Shown here piece by piece: positions 11,677 to 58,236 of a DNA stretch of 64,000 bases (positions are counted from its first letter, which is position 1; each line of letters starts with the position of its first letter). The stretch covers positions 4,402,001 to 4,466,000 of the forward strand of contig NC_089439.1 of the NCBI RefSeq assembly GCF_026210795.1, read 5' to 3'. Both the position numbers and the translations under genes were made by a program. Origin of the DNA: Rhizophagus irregularis (lineage: Eukaryota > Glomeromycota > Glomeromycetes > Glomerales > Glomeraceae). Below the pieces are notes generated by a model that saw only the letters and a list, made by a program, of their open reading frames with translations, was not told the DNA's origin and searched no databases.

Positions 11677-13404
11677 TCAATTTCTTGGTCTAATTTCAAC
11701 TATTAAGTTGAGACATTTAATTATACTGCCGTCACTGGTAATTTTAATAGGATTATTCATATCCACTAAATTAATTTCATATTTTCTAAACATTAAAGCC
11801 ATTAAACAAACTATTCCAGTCATTGATAACTTTCTTCCTGGACATAATCTTAATCCTCCACCAAACATAAGAAAAGAATTCTTCTTTGGCTCAAAATTTT
11901 CAACCATCCACCTATCAGGGTTAAATTTATTAGGTTCTTCCCAATATTCATCATTATTATGAATAGCTTTAGAATAAATTAGAAACAATGAGTCAGCTGG
12001 CCAATGATATTCCCCCGTTTTATTAGGTTTATCAATATATCTTGTAAATGAATGTACTACTGGAATAATGCGAGCTGTTTCCTTTACAATTGCTTCACAA
12101 TAATTTAAACTATAAAAATCATCTTTAGTAATTGGTCGCCTTTTATCACCTTGGAATACATTATCAATTTCTTTTAGCATTTTCTTTTTTACATCTGGAT
12201 TACATACAATATAATAAACAATGAATGAGAGTAAATTTCCAGTCTATATTTGAAATAAAAAATGAGTATTTAAATTAATTTCAAGTTAAAGTACATTGCA
12301 TTTCAATGATTAAAGTAATGTATAATAAAAATTTCCTTAAAAAGATTTACTTACTTTAAAAGTTCCACCACTAATTGCTTCTTGTATACTAAGGCAAATT
12401 TCAGCATCAGTCATAGATCTCATGGCTTCACCAGTTTCGATATAATTATTATCACGAATTGTATTTTTGATAATCATCGATGTCAACATATCATACGATA
12501 AAGATTCATTCAATGGTGTATATTCAATTTCTTGTCTTCGATTCTTAATCAATTCATCCAATCTTTGATTAACATAATTGAAGGTTTGTTTTATTTCATC
12601 TGCTTTCTTTCTAACAAATGGAACATTATGTCGTATAAAAGAAGGAACTACGAAAAACACTGAATATCCCATAACTAATCTACGTAATGCTTCAAATAAT
12701 CTCACAGAATCTTCAACTATTGCTGATGGATAATCAGTTTTTTCGTCACTAAGAGTATCAAAATAAGCTGCCATTGAATAAGATCTTTTACCAGTTAACA
12801 ATTTAATAATAAAATCATTTGTGTAATGATAAACCCATTCAGAAAAATCCAATTTATTTTTATGTTCTCTAATAATTTCTTCCTTAAGGAATAACTTAAT
12901 CCAATAACTTTCTAATTCATTGAAAAGTTTGTTTGTCTGTTTAATAGCTTCATTAGTAAATTTTGGTGACAAAATAGCTTGATTAAAAAAATGATTATTA
13001 AACATCCATGATTTATAATTATTATTGAACGTTAATCCTTTTCCGTAAAGCCCCAATTCTTCTGTTCCTTCGCATTTTGGATATTTCATTGCATGTGTAT
13101 TTTTTGATAAAATGTTTTCAAGGTATTTTTCTCGACATAAAATTATAGATCGCATATTTACACTATAAAACTCGTATATGCCACCATATTTCTCGTAACA
13201 ATAATCATAAAACGTTATGATATTTCCTTTAAACCACAAAATTTGAGGCAAATTACCAACGAACGGGAATGGGAATGGACCAGGTAAAGAATTGATACGA
13301 GTAAAATATTTGTAATAATAATATGCCACATATGTCATTAACATTGCTGTTAAGAATAAAATGCAATCATAAATTCCAAAATTCTCAAATAGTTTAAAAA
13401 TCAT
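11677..13404 (-). CDS. Cytochrome P450 monooxygenase A
   Basis: Two exons, 13404-12355 and 12243-11677, joined in phase by a 111-nt intron (GTAAGT...ATATAG), give 538 residues, normal for a fungal microsomal P450. An N-terminal membrane anchor (about residues 10-30) is followed by the proline-rich hinge LPGPFPFPFVGNLP. Exon 2 holds the K-helix ExxR (ETAR, residues 405-408), the NPDRW segment and the heme loop FGGGLRLCPG with the thiolate Cys at residue 484. The fold and heme site are intact, so it should be an ER-bound oxygenase using a reductase partner; the substrate is unknown. The intron splits the I helix, where the expected AGxDTT reads GGTFKT, so the acid-alcohol pair is missing. Two close paralogues lie at 51702-53410 (broken) and 56483-58236 (intact). 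Confidence 0.9.
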
Positions 13405-13463
13405 TTTATTTTTTTTTCAATTAACTTAGGATTAGCTTAATGTTTGATTTTAATTGATTTTTT

Positions 13464-17129: not shown

Positions 17130-17157
17130 ATGTAATTATATAAGTTTATTGATAAAT

Positions 17158-17285
17158 TGGATATTAATAAAAAACGTATGGTTTTAAAAGTTTTACAATT
17201 TTAAAAATTATATTATTTAACAATAATATGTTTGTTTTACCATAGCAAAAACTGAGTAAAATGTGAATCATAATAAAGGCATCTT
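17158..17285 (-). pseudogene. Degenerate tandem copy of the zinc-finger exon
   Basis: On the minus strand this repeats the last exon and 3' flank of the neighbouring gene (17286-17418). Shared stretches include CAGTTTTTGCTATG and ATATTGTTGTTAAATAAT. Here the second zinc-binding Cys codon region is broken (stop within TTATTATGATTCACA) and both His positions are lost. It arose by tandem duplication and is not a working exon. Confidence 0.65.
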
Positions 17286-17349
17286 TGGATATTAATAAAA
17301 AACATGGTTTTAAAAGTTATACAATTTCAAAAATTATCGTCTATGATTA

Positions 17350-18248
17350 TTATTTAACAACAATATGTACTCTTGCTATATGTTTTAACATAGCAAAAAC
17401 TTGAAAAAAATGTTTATCACAATAAGGGCATTTATCTTCAATTTCATTACATTCCTATGAAAAAAAAAAAATTAAATGTAAATAAAAAGATAGAACTTTG
17501 CAACATAAAAGCAATAAAAACAAACATATACCTGTGAAACAATATTTTCAATTATTGATATGTTTAAAGTAAAACCTGGTAAAGTGTCACCCCCATCTAA
17601 ATCTTCCCATTTACAATTATTACGAATAATTTCATTATTATTCTTCTTATAAGTACAAATCATGCGTCTCTTTGGATCAATTAACCATCCTAGCTCTACA
17701 GACGTACCCATTGCAAAGTAATCATTTTTGAATCTATTATCAACTTCATTAAGTATTTGATCACTTGTACTATTTACAACCTCAGCAACAAATATGGGAG
17801 TAAAAGGTCGGCCATGCAAAGTCCAAAGTTGTTTTGCATTAAGTGAGTTGTAAGTATCTGCAGACGTAAAAGCAACGTGTGGTGCTCGGATTTTTCTTGG
17901 AGCAGTGGTACTAAAATTAAAAGCCCCTTGAGATGTAGTAACAACACCATTTTGGCAGGTATCAATATTCCAGTTACCAAGTTGTCTGGAAATCTCATGT
18001 ACAACAGCCTCATGAGCAATTGGAGTTTGAGGAAGAGAGATTAGCCTTCCATCTTCAAAATTAGTACGAACTTTAAGATATTTGTTAATTTGTTCAAGTT
18101 CCTCTGGAGTGTAAGTACGGGTGAGATTCAATTTGTTTAAGTCTAATGAAAGAGAGAATTAGTATTAAAAATGTTTGGTGCAAAAGTCAAAATTGTTTCT
18201 TAATCACAAATCAAAAATTACTTTACCAAGATTTTCAGGTTCTGACAT
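17350..18248 (-). CDS. Uma2-family nuclease-fold protein with C-terminal C2H2 zinc finger
   Basis: Three exons, 18248-18227, 18142-17532 and 17454-17350, join in phase (GTAAAG...TTAG and GTATAT...ATAG introns) into 245 residues. Residues 18-205 match the Uma2/DUF820 PD-(D/E)XK-like family: YTPEEL start, DGRLISLP, HEAVVHEISRQL, RAPHVAF, TPIFVAEVVNSTSD, then ELGWLIDPKRR and a DGGDTLPGFTLNIS end. Bacterial relatives usually read RAPDVAF and PDxVVEV; here the Asp is His96 and the second Asp is Ile, while Glu128 is kept, so catalysis may be weakened or lost. The last exon codes CPYCDKHFFQVFAMLKHIAR then VH, a C-x2-C-x12-H-x4-H finger (Cys220, Cys223, His236, His241). A DNA-binding role is inferred. 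Uma2 domains are mainly bacterial, so an ancient transfer is plausible. The first exon is only 22 nt and is the least certain part. Confidence 0.75.
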
Positions 18249-19657
18249 GTTGCTTAATATGGAAACTGCTTAATATGGAAATAATATGGAAACACTGCAA
18301 AACTGCAAAATATTTAATATGCAATCTGTTTGGCTTGTGAATCGTTCATTTATATACTTTTATTCTTACACATACTTGGTCAAAATTGCAATTTTGTAGT
18401 CATTATGATGACAAATGTTTTATATAGAGATCTTGTTTCATATGATAGTTTTTTTTTACTATGTTTCAAATTGGTATCTTATTATAATATTAGGAAATTG
18501 AGCAATAACGTTACCTATCTTAATAATAATAATAATCGAGTTGATGTTAACTTGCATAACTGATGATTAATTTTCACAAAAATCGAAATAGAATTATACA
18601 TTTTTATACAAGTACATATTACCGAAATAGTATAAAATAATATGATTCACTATTTATTTCACGACAATACAAGATGTAACAATTAATCACCTGGCCCACA
18701 TTACAGTATAACTCCGGCCATTATGTTTATACATCACGTCATGTGTTTACGGTGAAATGATTGTTGTCAAACCGTCTATCGGTCACTGAAACTTCCCTGT
18801 AATTCGTAAATATATGATACATTTATGGAAGAATCTCAGTAAGCAATTAAGGTAATTTCCATGTTTTGAGGCAATAAATTTTGTGAATATGATACATTCG
18901 TGGTAATGACATGGAATAAGAAAACACGGAATATATGGCTTATATTTACCAATCAGTTTTAAGGCCCTAAAGGTCAACATGATTGCGAGGTCCTAGATGC
19001 CTCAGGCATAGGTGTTTATACAAGACCTTAAAATTACGTGTACTTCTATTCTTTTCCGACTGTTTTCTTCACGAAGCAAGGAGCGAGGTATTTACATAAG
19101 GAAGGTCATTCAAGCTTTCCAAAGTGCGAAGGAACAACCAAAGAAAACTAAAGAAATATATCTCTACTTTCTTCATAAACTTTCCTTCTGACAATACTTC
19201 TAGTAGAATATACTCTCTATACCTGGCTAGTTAAATTATTATGTTTTTTCATTTGCTACTACTTTATCTTCATGTCTCGTAGAGATTAACCAAGTCTATT
19301 TTTGCAATTCTTTCTTTATTAGCGAAATCTTGTTCTATGTTACATCAATATCATTACATTATGGTTTCCAAATACAAACCATGTTTCATTCATTCATTTT
19401 ACCATAATTATAAGAAACTTCATTTGTTTTACTTTAAAGTGATTTTTTAATAAAAATAATATTTAAATAATCTTTAACTAACTTTACTATCGTACATATT
19501 TTATAAAAAGCAAATACGTCTAAATAACAACTCATGAAATTTTTATAGTAAATAAATAATAACAGATATTATTAAAATTTTGTTTTAACAAGAGAAGGAT
19601 AAACAAAGCAATTCTTAAATGATGTAATTGAATAATCAAGAATTATTCTGATTAATA
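18249..19657. other. Gene-free interval
   Basis: It includes the upstream region of the Uma2 gene. Open frames of 64-77 codons have no protein character. No clear repeats. Confidence 0.4.
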
Positions 19658-19827
19658 AGGGCACTGTCAGATATTACCTAATATCACTTTAATATAAGAG
19701 CTTACCCCCCCAGGTAAGATATGTTATATATATAATTCCTTATATAATATTGTATGTAACCAAGATCTTTAGTTACCCCCCCTCCTCTCCTCCCCCTAAA
19801 ATATTAGGTAATATCTGACAGCACCCT
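19658..19827. mobile_element. MITE with AGGGYRCTGTCAGATATTACC termini
   Basis: A 170-bp element: left end AGGGCACTGTCAGATATTAC, right end GTAATATCTGACAGCACCCT, inverted over about 27 bases with two mismatches. AATA lies on each side (19654-19657 and 19828-19831), though this may be chance in AT repeats. The DNA around it matches 41850-41900 (reverse), where the element is absent, giving a paralogous empty site. Confidence 0.75.
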
Positions 19828-19831
19828 AATA

Positions 19832-20245
19832 ACTATTATTATTTAATATTAAGAACGCTCCCTATGGATTTACCAGACGGAACTAGAAATAGCTAAACCG
19901 AAATTTCCTTTGATGATCATATAATTAGAAGTTCCTGAAACAACAGTTGAAGCTTGAGAATATGATATTTTTTCTTCTTATAATCTTTCGTTACTCTAAG
20001 TTCTTCAACTAATTTGCAATCTGACTTGGATAAGTTGGATTAGGCCTTTATAGATAGTCCAAGCAATCTCATAGTTTCCTCCAAGTGCAATAAAATGATA
20101 TATATTAAGTAATAGTTTCTCACTTTACAAGGGGTTGGAAAGATGCCAACATAAAGTTTATCATATTTCGTATCTTCCATACTATCGGAAATAGTCTCAA
20201 TTGAAGCCCTAGATGCAATATTATGATCACAAAAAAAATATTTGA
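19832..20245 (-). repeat. Decayed dispersed sequence, copy 1 (former coding DNA)
   Basis: The minus strand matches 41452-41895 over about 400 bp with many indels. In pieces it still reads like protein (SDSMEDTKYDKLYVGIFPTP, then ...KVRNYY; later STVVSGTSNYMIIKGNFGL), but stops break every frame. The family is not recognised. It is either a duplicated pseudogene or part of a mobile element. Confidence 0.5.
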
Positions 20246-50779: not shown

Positions 50780-51690
50780 GATGGCGATCGCTAGGTGTCG
50801 GGTAATGAATTGGCGGGAATTTGATAATGAACTTTCGGGGTTTATGTTTGGGATTTTGGCCAGAGCAGGATATTAGCGGCCAGCTGACACATTAATAATA
50901 TTAAAAATTATCCATAATGATTGATTATTAAGAAAATTTAACCCTGATAAATGGATCCGATATGATACATTATTGTGTCACGAGGTTATGATTATACTAT
51001 TTTCTGACGATCCTAATAAGCCATCACGTGTTGATACTTCCAAAATTTTCAGCTTCCTGTTTATTATATTGAAAAAAGCATGAACATCAATCTCCACTTT
51101 TAAATGATTTACTTTACCAATAAAGTAATTACTTCGATTGTATTAATTTATGTGGAAATTTATACATTTCTATGTAAAAAAAATTGCATACCAAAGACAT
51201 ATATATCATACAGCTTCATAATTTTTTATTACTCAGATATACCACGAAATTTAATGTAACTTATTATTGTTAAATCTTTTAATCTTTCTTTTTTATTAAA
51301 AAAAAAAAAGATCTGCAAATTGAAAATTACCACATGTACTGTAATTGACGATCATTCATCTTGAATCAGATTAGTTCATGAAGATAATGTGATGGTTATT
51401 TTTTAAATGTCAAAAATTTCACCATCCTCAGACCTCGTCGGTTCTCCAATAATTATAGATTACTATACCTGAAAAAAAGAAACTGAACAAGTAAACAAAA
51501 AAGTATATCATACCTTGGTGCAACAGCGCCTACAAAAAATCAATTAGAACATTAAGCTAAACCTAAATTAAATTTTATAATTGGATGTAATGATTTATAT
51601 GTCATCTTAAAAGTTTTTGATTTAAATATTTAGAAAAAAAATTATGCAAAATAAAAGAATTTATATTAACTTTTTAAATAAAATATATGA
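50780..51690 (+). pseudogene. Relict P450 fragment and duplicated 5' flank of P450 B
   Basis: 50875-50975 reads like P450 exon 2 DNA (CCAGCTGACACATT, then ACCCTGATAAATGGATCCG against the NPDRW codons) with gaps. 50815-50865 matches the AACTTTCGGGGTTTATGTTTGGGATTT stretch near 14345-14410 (reverse). 51000-51690 matches the 5' flank of P450 A. A block duplication with old P450 debris upstream. Confidence 0.6.
51424..51455 (+). promoter_or_regulatory. Conserved P450 5' block 1
   Basis: CCTCAGACCTCGTCGGTTCT then CCAATAATT, about 250 bases before the pseudogene start. The same block occurs before the other two P450 genes. Confidence 0.35.
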
Positions 51691-51701
51691 CAAACAATAA
51701 A

Positions 51702-53410
51702 ATGATATTTGGACTATTTAAGAATATTGGAATTTATAATTGTGTTTTATTCTTAACTGCAATGTTAATGATGTATGTGACATATTTCTATTACAAATAT
51801 TTTACTCGTGTCAATTCTTTACCTGGTCCACTCCCATTCCCATTCCTTGGTAATTTTCCTCAAATTTTGTGGTTTGGTGGAAATATCCATATGTTTTATA
51901 TTTATTGTTGCGAGAAATATGGTGACATATATGAGACTTATAGTGTAAATATACGAACTGTAGTTTTATGTCGAAGAAAATACCTTGAGAACATTTTATC
52001 AAAAAATACACATGGAATGAAATTTCCCAAATGCGAAGGAACAGAAAAATTGGGAGTTTACGGAAAGGATTAGCGTTCAATAATGATTATAAATCGTGGA
52101 TGTTTAATAATCATTTTTTTAATCAAGCTATTTTGTCACCAAAATTTACTAATGAAGCTATTGATCAGACAAACAAACTTTTCAATGAATTAGAAAGTTA
52201 TTGGAGTAAATTATTTCTTAAGAAAGAAATTATTCAAGAACATAAAAATAAATTAAATTATTCTGAATGGTCTTATCATTACACAAATGATATTATTATT
52301 AAATTGTTAACTGGTAAAAGATCTTATTCAATGGCAGCTTATTTTGATGCTCTTAGTGATGAAAAAACTGATTATCCTAAAGATTCTGTGAAATTATTTC
52401 TAGCATTTCGTAAATTAGTTACTGTGGGATATGCATTATTTGCTGTAGTTCCTTCTTTCATACGATATAATTTTCCATTTGTTAGAAAGATAACAGATGA
52501 AGTATTACAAGACTTGGATTATATTAATCAAACATTGGATGCAATGATTAAGAGTCGAAGACAAGAAATTGAACATACACCATTGAATGAACCTTTGAAC
52601 CTTTATCGCATGATATGTTGACATCGATGATTATCAAAAATACAATTCGTGAGATCTTTGACTGATGCCAAAATTCGCGCTAATATGCAAGAAGCAATTT
52701 GTACTGGAACTTATAAAGTAAGTAAATTTTTTTAGGAAAATTTTATGTTTAATATTATATATTATTTAGTCATTGAAATTTTAACATGAATGCAATGTGC
52801 TTTAACTTGAAATTAATTTAAACAATCCTTATTATTTATTTCAAATATAGACTGGGAATTTACTTTCATTCATTGTCTATTATATTGAACATAATCCAGA
52901 TGTGAAAAATAAGTTGCTAAAAGAAATTGATAGTATATTCCAAGGTGATAAAATATGACCAATAACTAAAGATGATTTTTATAGCTTAAGCTATCTATTG
53001 TGAAGCGATTGTAAAGGAAGCAGCTCGCATGTTCCCAGTAATACACTCGTTTACAAGATATATTGATAAACCCACGAAACAGCGGAATATCATTGACCAG
53101 CTGACACATTGTTTGCAATTAACGTTAAAGCTATTCATACAGATAATGATGATTGGGAAGAACCTAATAAATTTAATCCTTAATTGAAAATTTTGAGCCA
53201 AATAAGAATTCCTTTCTTATGTTTGGTGGAGGATTAAGATTATGTCCAGTAAGAAAATTATCAATGATTGTATTAGTTTGTCTTACGGCTTTAATGTTTA
53301 GAAAATATGAAATTAATTTAGTAGATAAGAATTCTCCTATTAAAATTACCAGTGACGGCTGTATAATCAAATGTCTCAATTTATTAGTTGAAATTAGACC
53401 AAGAAATTGA
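51702..53410 (+). pseudogene. Cytochrome P450 pseudogene B
   Basis: A close paralogue of the P450s at 11677-13404 and 56483-58236, with the same intron (donor GTAAGT at about 52719, acceptor ATATAG at about 52850). Lesions seen: loss of one base in the GKGL codons near 52066; a frameshift near 52595; a deletion of about 36 bp after the ITIR-type codons near 52651; a stop replacing Arg near 52957; an insertion near 52990; a frame change near 53078; loss of the DRWMV codons near 53183; and Gly to Val next to the heme Cys (LCPV instead of LCPG). It cannot make a working enzyme. The start aligns with the Met at 51702, not the upstream ATG at 51687. Confidence 0.9.
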
Positions 53411-56342: not shown

Positions 56343-56482
56343 TAAATTACTAAAAAAATATATAAATATACTGAAAAAAGAAGCTGAACAACAAAAAAAA
56401 GTATATCAATACAGTGTAACAGCGTCTACAAGGATTCAATTAAATCAAACAATACGCTAAGCCAAAGTTAAATTTAAATAAG

Positions 56483-58236
56483 ATGATTTTTGGACTATTT
56501 GAGAATTTTGGAATTTATGATTGTGTTTTATTCTTAACATTAACGTATGTGGCATATTACTATTACAAATATTTTACTCGTGAAAATCCTTTACCTGGTC
56601 CATTCCCATTCCCATTAGTTGGTAATTTTCCTCAAATTTTGTGGTTTATCGGAAATATTGAAATGTTTTTTAATTGTTGTTACAAGAAATATGGTGACAT
56701 ATATGAGATTTATACTATAAATATACGAACTATAGTTTTATGTCAAAGAAAATACCTTGATAACATTTTATCAAAAAATACACATGAAATGAAAATTCCA
56801 AAATGCAAAATACTAACAAAAGAATTGGGAAGTGAAGGAAAAGGATTAACGTTAAATAATGATTATAAATCGTGGATGTTTAATCGTCATTTTTTTAATC
56901 AAGCTATTTTGTCACCAAAATTTACTAATGAAGCTATTGAACAGACAAACAAACTTTTCAATGAATTAGAAAGTTATTGGAGTAAATTATTTCTTAAAGA
57001 AGAAATTATTAAAGAAAATAAAAATATATTGAATTTTTCTGAATGGTTTCAATATTACACAAATGATATTACTATTAAATTGTTATCTGGTAAAAGATCT
57101 TATTCAATGGCAACTTATTTTAATACTCTTAGTGATGAAAAAGCTGATTATCCTGAAGATGCTGTGAAATTGTCTCAAACATTTCATAAACCAATTACGG
57201 AATATTCAATATTTTTCGTAGTTCCTCCTTTCATACGACATAATATTCCATTTTTTAAAAATAAAGCAAATAGTATACTTCAAACTTTGGATAATGTCAA
57301 TCAAACACTGGATGCAATAATTAAGAGTCGTAGACAAGAAATTGAAGATACATCATTGAATGAACCCTTACAGAATGATATGTTGACATCGATGATCATC
57401 AAAAATACTCTTCGTGATAATAATTATATCGAAACTGGTGAAGCCATGAGATCTTTGACTGATGCCGAAATTCGCGCTAATATGCAAGAAGCAATTAATA
57501 GTGCAGCTTTGAAAGTAAGTAAATTTTATTAGAGAAATTATATGTTTAGGTTATTATATTATTTTAGTCATTGAAATTTAAACATAAATGCAATGTACTT
57601 TAACTTGAAGTAAATTTAAACATTCCTTTTTTTTTATTTCAAATATAGATTGGGAATATGCTTTCATTCATTGTTTATTATATTGCACATAATCCAGATG
57701 TGAAAAAGAAACTACTAGAAGAAATTGATAGTATATTCCAAGGTGATAAAATAAGACCAATTACTAAAGATGATTTTTATAGTTTAAGTTATTGTGAAGC
57801 AATTGTAAAGGAAGTAGCTCGCATTTTTCCAGTAACACACTTGATTACAAGATATATTGATAACCCTAGCGAAACAGCGGAATATCATTGGCCAGCTGGC
57901 ACATTGTTTGTAATTAATTCTAAAGTTATTCAAAATAATGATGATGATTGGGAAGAACCTAATAAATTTAACCCTGATAGATGGATGGTTGAAAATTTTG
58001 AGCCAAATAAGAATTCTTTTCTTATGTTTGGTGGTGGATCAAGATTTTGTCCAGGAAGAAAGTTATCAATGATTGAATTAGTTTGTTTGACGGCTTTAAT
58101 TTTTAGAAAATATGAAGTTGATTTAGTAGATATGAATGCTCCTATTAAAGTTACCAGTGATCCCGGTTTAGTTAGATGTCTCAGTTTATTAGTTGAAATT
58201 AGACCAAGAAATTGTTATGTTGGTGCCGATTATTGA
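56483..58236 (+). CDS. Cytochrome P450 monooxygenase C
   Basis: Exons 56483-57514 and 57649-58236 join in phase across a 134-nt intron, giving 539 residues. N-terminal anchor (about 8-25), hinge LPGPFPFPLVGNFP, ExxR as EVAR (399-402), NPDRW, and heme loop FGGGSRFCPG with Cys478: all structural hallmarks are present. The I-helix motif reads SAALKIGNML where AGxDTT is expected, so the acid-alcohol pair is absent here too, and even the Thr is replaced by Ile. The C-terminus is seven residues longer than that of P450 A because the stop has moved (RPRNCYVGADY). It should be ER-bound and reductase-dependent if active; the substrate is unknown. In tandem with pseudogene B, and paralogous to A on the opposite strand. 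Confidence 0.9.

What the first reader, a model, noticed from the sequence alone, without database searches (positions are those of the whole stretch)
17350..18248. Uma2 nuclease-fold domain joined to a C2H2 zinc finger
Exon 2 ends in phase 0 at a GT donor, and the next AG acceptor opens a 34-codon exon coding a perfect C-x2-C-x12-H-x4-H finger that ends in a stop. Uma2/DUF820 proteins are mostly bacterial single-domain PD-(D/E)XK relatives; a C-terminal eukaryotic finger would make a natural nuclease-plus-DNA-binding protein. The usual Asp of RAPDVAF is His96, which raises the alternative of a non-cutting DNA-binding protein.
Basis: partly seen in the sequence, partly recalled or inferred. 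Interest (0 to 1): 0.78.

Follow-up and report, generated by a model that had tools for sequence, protein, structure and literature searches.

The report
Bacterial-type nuclease fold plus zinc finger
This fungal gene joins a nuclease-like fold best known from bacteria to a single zinc finger; it is one of about eighteen such genes in its genome and lacks a key cutting residue, so it may bind DNA or RNA rather than cut it.

Summary
On the minus strand, exons 18248-18227, 18142-17532 and 17454-17350 code 245 residues: a Uma2 domain (58.6 bits, cut-off 27), then one C-x2-C-x12-H-x4-H finger, the only such pattern in six frames of the window. No RNA evidence was available. The gene is not alone: the genome has 25 Uma2 matches, 18 of this type. 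All 17 modelled loci share the phase-0 GT-AG intron; 15 of 18 carry a finger exon. In 14 aligned fingers the four zinc ligands and one Lys are invariant, though subfamilies share only 2-6 of the 18 other positions. So the fusion is old in this genome and kept by selection. The predicted fold matches TT1808, a solved Uma2 protein (Z 17.5). In the window gene and four close relatives the metal-binding Asp is His; their coding sequence stayed constrained afterwards, yet three of these five lost the finger. Best reading: a probably non-cutting nucleic-acid-binding member of a nuclease-plus-finger family, 10 of 17 of whose modelled members keep both Asp and Glu. Cutting, binding and splicing are untested.

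The parts
18227..18248 (-). exon 1 (MSEPENL plus first base of codon 8)
   Evidence: ATG to GT donor at 18226; the close paralogue C12a has a like layout
17532..18142 (-). exon 2, Uma2 domain; ends in phase 0
17559..18104 (-). Uma2 domain, residues 21-202
   Evidence: 58.6 bits, cut-off 27; model matches 1wdj, Z 17.5
17877..17879 (-). His96 in place of the metal-binding Asp
17781..17783 (-). Glu128, second carboxylate, kept
17727..17735 (-). Arg144-Phe145-Lys146, helix that should carry the relocated Lys; register unresolved
   Evidence: three alignments disagree
17455..17531 (-). intron 2, 77 nt, phase 0
   Evidence: GT-AG at the same place in 17 of 17 modelled loci
17350..17454 (-). exon 3, 34 codons and stop
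17365..17430 (-). C2H2 finger CPYCDKHFFQVFAMLKHIARVH
   Evidence: only match of the pattern in six frames of the window; ligands invariant in 14 of 14
17154..17301 (-). decayed tandem copy of exon 3 and what follows it
   Evidence: direct repeats D1-D5

Best explanation
The gene is an intact-looking member of a fungal family in which a Uma2 (PD-(D/E)XK-fold) domain, related to Uma2 proteins of cyanobacteria, is joined to one C-terminal C2H2 finger on its own exon. Shown here: gene anatomy in DNA, domain family, predicted fold, shared splice position, and selection on both the finger and the domain. Inferred: the family came from bacteria; its members work in the nucleus; the finger docks the protein on a nucleic acid (or a partner); members that keep Asp and Glu cut or nick. 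In the window gene and four close relatives Asp is His, so it most likely binds without cutting, as a regulator or a competitor of cutting paralogues. Odds: about 0.95 for the fusion as a coding unit, about 0.5 for 'does not cut but is functional', less for the regulator or competitor role.
For: Uma2 58.6 bits. Fold: pLDDT 80.6, best match 1wdj, Foldseek E 1.1e-9, Z 17.5 over 146 residues. Phase-0 GT-AG intron in 17 of 17 modelled loci; finger exon in 15 of 18. Four ligands and a Lys invariant in 14 of 14 fingers, with synonymous change in their codons; pooled finger pN 0.076 against pS 0.190, p 0.006. Exon-3 queries from three subfamilies: 14 of 14 distinct places with E up to 0.01 lie beside Uma2 sequence, intact or decayed. 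Asp, Glu and Lys invariant in 29 of 29 bacterial or viral-contig rows but Asp is His in 5 of 17 fungal ones, one change to His on the tree. After that change the coding sequence is constrained: window/C4 p 0.0009, C12a/C12b p 6e-7, C4/C12b p 0.009.
Against: No RNA, binding or cutting data. Finger scores are below Pfam's cut-offs, and exon 3 folded alone without an alignment gave one helix, not a finger fold. Three of the five His-bearing genes have lost the finger. For the closest pair, window/C12a, constraint is not significant (p 0.17) and exon 3 shows 8 nonsynonymous and 2 synonymous differences. The window's own exon 1 has no basic cluster. One finger alone often gives weak sequence specificity (recalled).
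Confidence: 0.5

Rival explanations
1. Active nuclease in spite of His96: His or another acid takes over metal binding, so the protein still cuts, with the finger helping to choose the site.
For: Glu128 is kept; the His is shared by all five members of its clade and the domain stays constrained. Active-site variants are common in this superfamily (PMC551604, passages).
Against: Asp is invariant in 29 of 29 bacterial or viral-contig rows and called practically invariant in COG4636 (PMC551604).
Confidence: 0.15
2. A paralogue on its way out: the family lives by birth and death, and the window copy has no function now.
For: Broken copies at C28, C3, C23, C14:4834k, C20 and C29; window/C12a constraint not significant (p 0.17); C19/C14 dN/dS 1.02; finger lost in three of five His genes.
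Against: Open frame, splice sites and zinc ligands all intact; significant constraint along deeper branches of the His clade.
Confidence: 0.2
3. The finger binds RNA or a protein (for example a partner or a second copy) and not DNA; the Uma2 fold is a scaffold.
For: There is a single finger; the helix positions vary widely between subfamilies. C2H2 fingers that bind protein or RNA are known (recalled).
Against: The fold is that of DNA-cutting enzymes; Lys/Arg-rich exon 1 or linkers in several paralogues fit a nuclear place, though not against RNA.
Confidence: 0.25
4. A selfish nuclease gene that spreads by cutting, as proposed for COG4636 in cyanobacteria.
For: Dispersed copies on many contigs; COG4636 was proposed to be selfish and to spread after transfer (PMC551604, abstract and section 3 part 3).
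Against: Compared copies share kilobases of flank: window/C12a about 2.8 kb, C9/C2a 5.9 kb, which points to segmental duplication and not to precise insertion of the gene. His96 makes cutting by this copy doubtful.
Confidence: 0.07
5. The finger is not in the mature product: intron 2 is kept or exon 3 skipped.
For: Keeping intron 2 adds 19 residues and a stop; three relatives have an exon 3 without a finger.
Against: Splice position shared by 17 of 17 loci while intron length runs from 62 to 88 nt; finger evolves as coding sequence.
Confidence: 0.05

Closest known systems
Uma2 / DUF820 / COG4636, TT1808 (PDB 1wdj) type
   Same: Profile match, predicted fold (Z 17.5), Glu of the active site, multi-copy habit.
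   Different: Asp is His; eukaryotic gene with introns; C-terminal finger, which is absent from 80 of 80 cyanobacterial frames examined.
Uma2 genes reported in the fungus Diversispora epigaea
   Same: Uma2 genes in an arbuscular mycorrhizal fungus, said to come from mycoplasma-related endobacteria (review PMC8227670, passages).
   Different: The original paper was not held; whether those genes carry a finger is unknown to me. Here the relatives found are cyanobacterial, but endobacteria were not searched.
Other fungal Uma2: Trichophyton rubrum F2SXP0
   Same: A Uma2 domain in a fungal proteome (PMC4102429, passages).
   Different: One protein only in that survey; no finger mentioned in the passages seen.
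Proteins joining a zinc finger to a restriction-like nuclease: R2 retrotransposons, FAN1, engineered zinc-finger nucleases (all recalled)
   Same: Works-like comparison: zinc finger and nuclease fold in one protein.
   Different: Other nuclease families and other large domains; no kinship to Uma2 was tested.

Membership tests
Uma2 (PF05685) | Profile match above the curated cut-off | tested here: met
   58.6 bits, cut-off 27, residues 21-202
Uma2 (PF05685) | PD-(D/E)XK fold of the TT1808 type | tested here: met
   Predicted model, 1wdj Z 17.5, 146 residues, 2.4 A; Foldseek E 1.1e-9
Uma2 (PF05685) | Active-site Asp of the PD half-motif | tested here: not met
   His96 in the window gene; Asp in 11 of 17 modelled paralogues
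Uma2 (PF05685) | Active-site Glu | tested here: met
   Glu128; kept in 16 of 17 paralogues
Uma2 (PF05685) | Relocated Lys in the following helix | tested here: inconclusive
   Bacterial Lys aligns with Lys146, Arg144 or Phe145 depending on the method
Uma2 nuclease | Cuts nucleic acid | not testable with these tools
   needs the purified protein
C2H2 zinc finger (PF00096, PF13894) | Two Cys and two His at finger spacing with a hydrophobic core | tested here: met
   C-x2-C-x12-H-x4-H; ligands invariant in 14 of 14, hydrophobic at positions 8 and 14 in 14 of 14; C11b and C2a have C-x4-C
C2H2 zinc finger (PF00096, PF13894) | Profile match above the curated cut-off | tested here: not met
   17.1 and 19.3 bits, cut-offs 25.2 and 27
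C2H2 zinc finger (PF00096, PF13894) | Beta-beta-alpha fold around zinc | tested here: inconclusive
   single-sequence model without zinc shows one helix, pLDDT 76
C2H2 zinc finger (PF00096, PF13894) | Binds zinc and DNA | not testable with these tools
   needs experiment
Candidate phage-defence Uma2 (PADLOC PDC-S03) | Profile match together with a defence setting | tested here: inconclusive
   E 5e-9, 33.9 bits, no cut-off given; a setting in a fungus was not tested

The most novel reading that the evidence does not exclude
The fungus holds a diversifying set of natural zinc-finger nucleases built from a captured bacterial Uma2 domain. Recombination inside the Uma2 exon exchanges fingers between copies (C9 matches C2a in front and C2b behind, finger included), re-aiming the nuclease, while Asp-to-His members such as the window gene act as non-cutting competitors at shared targets.
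Probability: 0.12. Interest if true: 0.85.

Novelty: new variant of a known kind. Interest (0 to 1): 0.6.

Why it matters
Uma2 is a large, mostly bacterial family of unproven function. A eukaryotic lineage that joined it to a finger, kept the finger through many duplications and let the active site vary offers presumed cutting and non-cutting versions side by side, so the question of what Uma2 proteins do becomes testable in pairs. If some members cut where the finger directs, they would be naturally evolved zinc-finger nucleases. In print: Uma2 plus 'zinc finger' lists two papers, which by title and abstract concern Ustilago metabolism and strawberry ripening; Uma2 plus Rhizophagus one review; PF05685 one fungal domain survey; COG4636 nine and DUF820 seven papers, none with a fungal title. 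Subscription papers, among them the Diversispora genome paper, were not held, and protein databases that may already list this architecture could not be searched.

Tried and rejected
Close relatives by patterns from the fungal profile: none confirmed in genome contigs (36 stretches) or viral contigs (35 stretches). A mixed profile gave 80 cyanobacterial loci (554 relatives, best 80 kept) and 1 viral contig; its first row was a Tolypothrix protein, so these 80 are nearest to that protein, not to the fungus. The fungal profile matched 95 of 292 genomes of one cyanobacterial phylum sample. Other phyla were not surveyed beyond one Thermomicrobium plasmid protein, so the donor is open.

A spliced retrocopy, which would prove the junction, was suspected at C19:2004k because the match ran past the exon end. 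The Uma2 part there stops at the end of exon 2 and runs into other sequence; it is no retrocopy.

Tree: the first tree used wrongly oriented rows (five were dropped by the program, L121 was out of frame). It was rebuilt with the right strands and only one search is used. L030 was left out of the second tree. For the Asp count on the tree all non-fungal rows were entered as Asp without checking each. The C3 row holds an out-of-frame front part, so the C24/C3 figures are not used.

Selection figures are Nei-Gojobori pair counts without a likelihood model; the Fisher tests are rough. One search pools 6 sister pairs of my choice, 12 of 14 finger rows (C3 and C9 left out). Against the picture of constraint: C19/C14 dN/dS 1.02 and C13/C16 0.63, not significant (p 0.55 and 0.10).

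PDB by sequence: nothing for the exon alone; the profile gave 1wdj at E 1.9e-4 among 7 rows, several of them chance-like. Exon 3 folded alone gave no finger fold. Weak finger-exon hits at C21:582k (E 0.34) and C22:277k (E 0.71) were not followed, so fingers of this type outside Uma2 loci are not excluded.

Contamination rejected: the genes lie on multi-megabase contigs of the window's own assembly and have introns.

Papers: PMC551604, abstract, passages and section 3 parts 2 and 3; PMC8227670, PMC4102429, PMC2701414 and PMC1913061, passages only; PMC5982333 and PMC8778642, word search with no occurrence.

Full report
1. What is there. The minus strand of 18248-17350 holds a three-exon gene: exon 1 18248-18227, intron 1 18226-18143, exon 2 18142-17532, intron 2 17531-17455, exon 3 17454-17350. 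The product is 245 residues. Pfam gives Uma2 at 58.6 bits (cut-off 27) over residues 21-202; the C2H2 families score 17-19 bits, below their cut-offs. The finger pattern occurs once in six frames of the window.

2. A family. The genome (146.7 Mb, 32 contigs) has 25 Uma2 matches. Seven are another type, open frames of 332-406 residues with no finger in the stretches read. Eighteen are of the window's type. Seventeen were modelled: all 17 have a GT donor and an AG acceptor in phase 0 at the end of the Uma2 part, with introns of 62-88 nt. Fourteen of these 17 code a finger in exon 3, and so does the eighteenth, C28: 15 of 18. The other three, C4, C12b and C5, have an acidic exon 3. Of the 18, C28 has one in-frame TAG and C3 a break of frame. 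Further degraded copies lie at C23, C19:2004k, C14:4834k, C20 and C29, with short fragments elsewhere.

3. The finger is kept by selection. Across 14 fingers the two Cys, the two His and the Lys before the first His are invariant, while all five codons vary synonymously. Between five subfamily representatives only 2-6 of the 18 other positions match, against 4 of 4 ligands, in 10 of 10 comparisons. Pooled over six sister pairs the finger shows pN 0.076 and pS 0.190, p 0.006. Exon-3 queries from three subfamilies hit 14 distinct places at E up to 0.01, all 14 beside Uma2 sequence, three of them (C14:4834k, C20, C29) decayed or cut. Weaker hits were not followed.

4. Fold and relatives. The exon-2 model (37 rows; pLDDT 80.6, pTM 0.73) matches TT1808 of Thermus (1wdj) best: Foldseek E 1.1e-9, Z 17.5 over 146 residues at 2.4 A; other DUF820-like entries follow. 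The fungal profile aligns with a profile of 28 cyanobacterial rows and one viral-contig row at probability 99.5, E 3.7e-22. The 17 fungal rows form one clade (support 100/100) against 33 cyanobacterial rows and one viral-contig row. None of 80 cyanobacterial frames carries the finger pattern. Transfer from bacteria is inferred; the donor is open. A review says that Diversispora epigaea received Uma2 genes from mycoplasma-related endobacteria (PMC8227670, passages).

5. Active site. COG4636 proteins use PD-EXX-K; Asp and Glu are practically invariant and Lys sits in a helix (PMC551604). In 29 of 29 bacterial or viral-contig rows Asp, Glu and Lys are invariant. In the fungus Asp is kept in 11 of 17; His stands in 5 (window, C12a, C4, C12b, C5) and Asn in C13; Glu is kept in 16 of 17, with Lys in C14; 10 of 17 keep both. 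The Lys register is unresolved. On the tree the finger needs one change among the 17 fungal rows and the Asp column two, one to His and one to Asn. Differences inside the His clade are constrained: window/C4 84 of 484 nonsynonymous against 40 of 131 synonymous sites, p 0.0009; C12a/C12b p 6e-7; C4/C12b p 0.009; C12b/C5 p 0.016; window/C12a alone p 0.17. So the clade looks maintained after Asp was lost, and a role other than cutting is the simplest reading; the window copy alone is less sure.

6. Where it may act. Exon 1 is Lys/Arg-rich in C16, C19 and C14 (C19 begins MSQKRKRSTKKPSK) and in the part seen of C13; C4 begins MPPKKKEI, C12b and C5 MPPKKEI; C19 and C14 carry further basic clusters before the finger. 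I read these as possible nuclear signals by eye; no predictor was run. The window's exon 1 has none.

7. How copies move. Window and C12a align over 17259-19658 and 19827-20234 at 86-88%; C9 and C2a over 5.9 kb at 97.7%: segmental duplication. In blocks of 100 columns C9 equals C2a in the first six and C2b from the sixth to the twelfth, which hold the end of the Uma2 exon, the intron and the finger. One of these copies is therefore a recombinant whose finger was exchanged; the direction is not shown. A decayed tandem copy of exon 3 follows the window gene.

8. Function. For COG4636 in bacteria two views are in print: selfish spreading nucleases (PMC551604) and likely solo toxins (PMC2701414, passages). 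I commit, at about even odds, to a maintained binder without cutting for the window gene. Rivals are an active enzyme with an altered site, a decaying copy, or a finger that serves RNA or protein contacts.

9. Verdict. I call the architecture a new variant of a known kind.

Noticed in passing
G000: C21:1330k, C5:1526k, C1:4285k, C7:4450k, C7:176k, C4:3588k, C17:272k (L014, L018, L023-L027): A second Uma2 type in the same genome, seven loci with open frames of 332-406 residues and no finger; Uma2 covers only part of them.
   Followed up: partly
window 17154-17301: Decayed tandem copy of exon 3 just behind the gene; a trace of a like copy seems to follow C12a.
   Followed up: partly
L032 4818-5043 (C24:1048001-1057000): A 227-base fragment 98.7% identical to window 17956-18182, spanning the start of exon 2 and part of intron 1, while the flanks shared with the window are much less alike.
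   Followed up: no
L020 and L021 (C2:807k and C9:45k), L017 (C2:3476k): C9 equals C2a in front and C2b behind, finger included: an exchange of fingers by recombination or conversion.
   Followed up: yes
L036, from about 1930: A Uma2 copy cut at the end of exon 2 runs into a frame with a GKTS stretch that looks like an ATP-binding loop by eye.
   Followed up: no
C19:3444k (L009) and C14:321k (L012): Pair with dN/dS 1.02 in exon 2 and, in C14, Lys in place of the active-site Glu: relaxed or changing selection.
   Followed up: no
window 11677-13416, 51678-52621, 56444-58236: Several frames that look like related cytochrome P450 genes (heme-loop FGGG-R-CPG motif recalled, read by eye).
   Followed up: no
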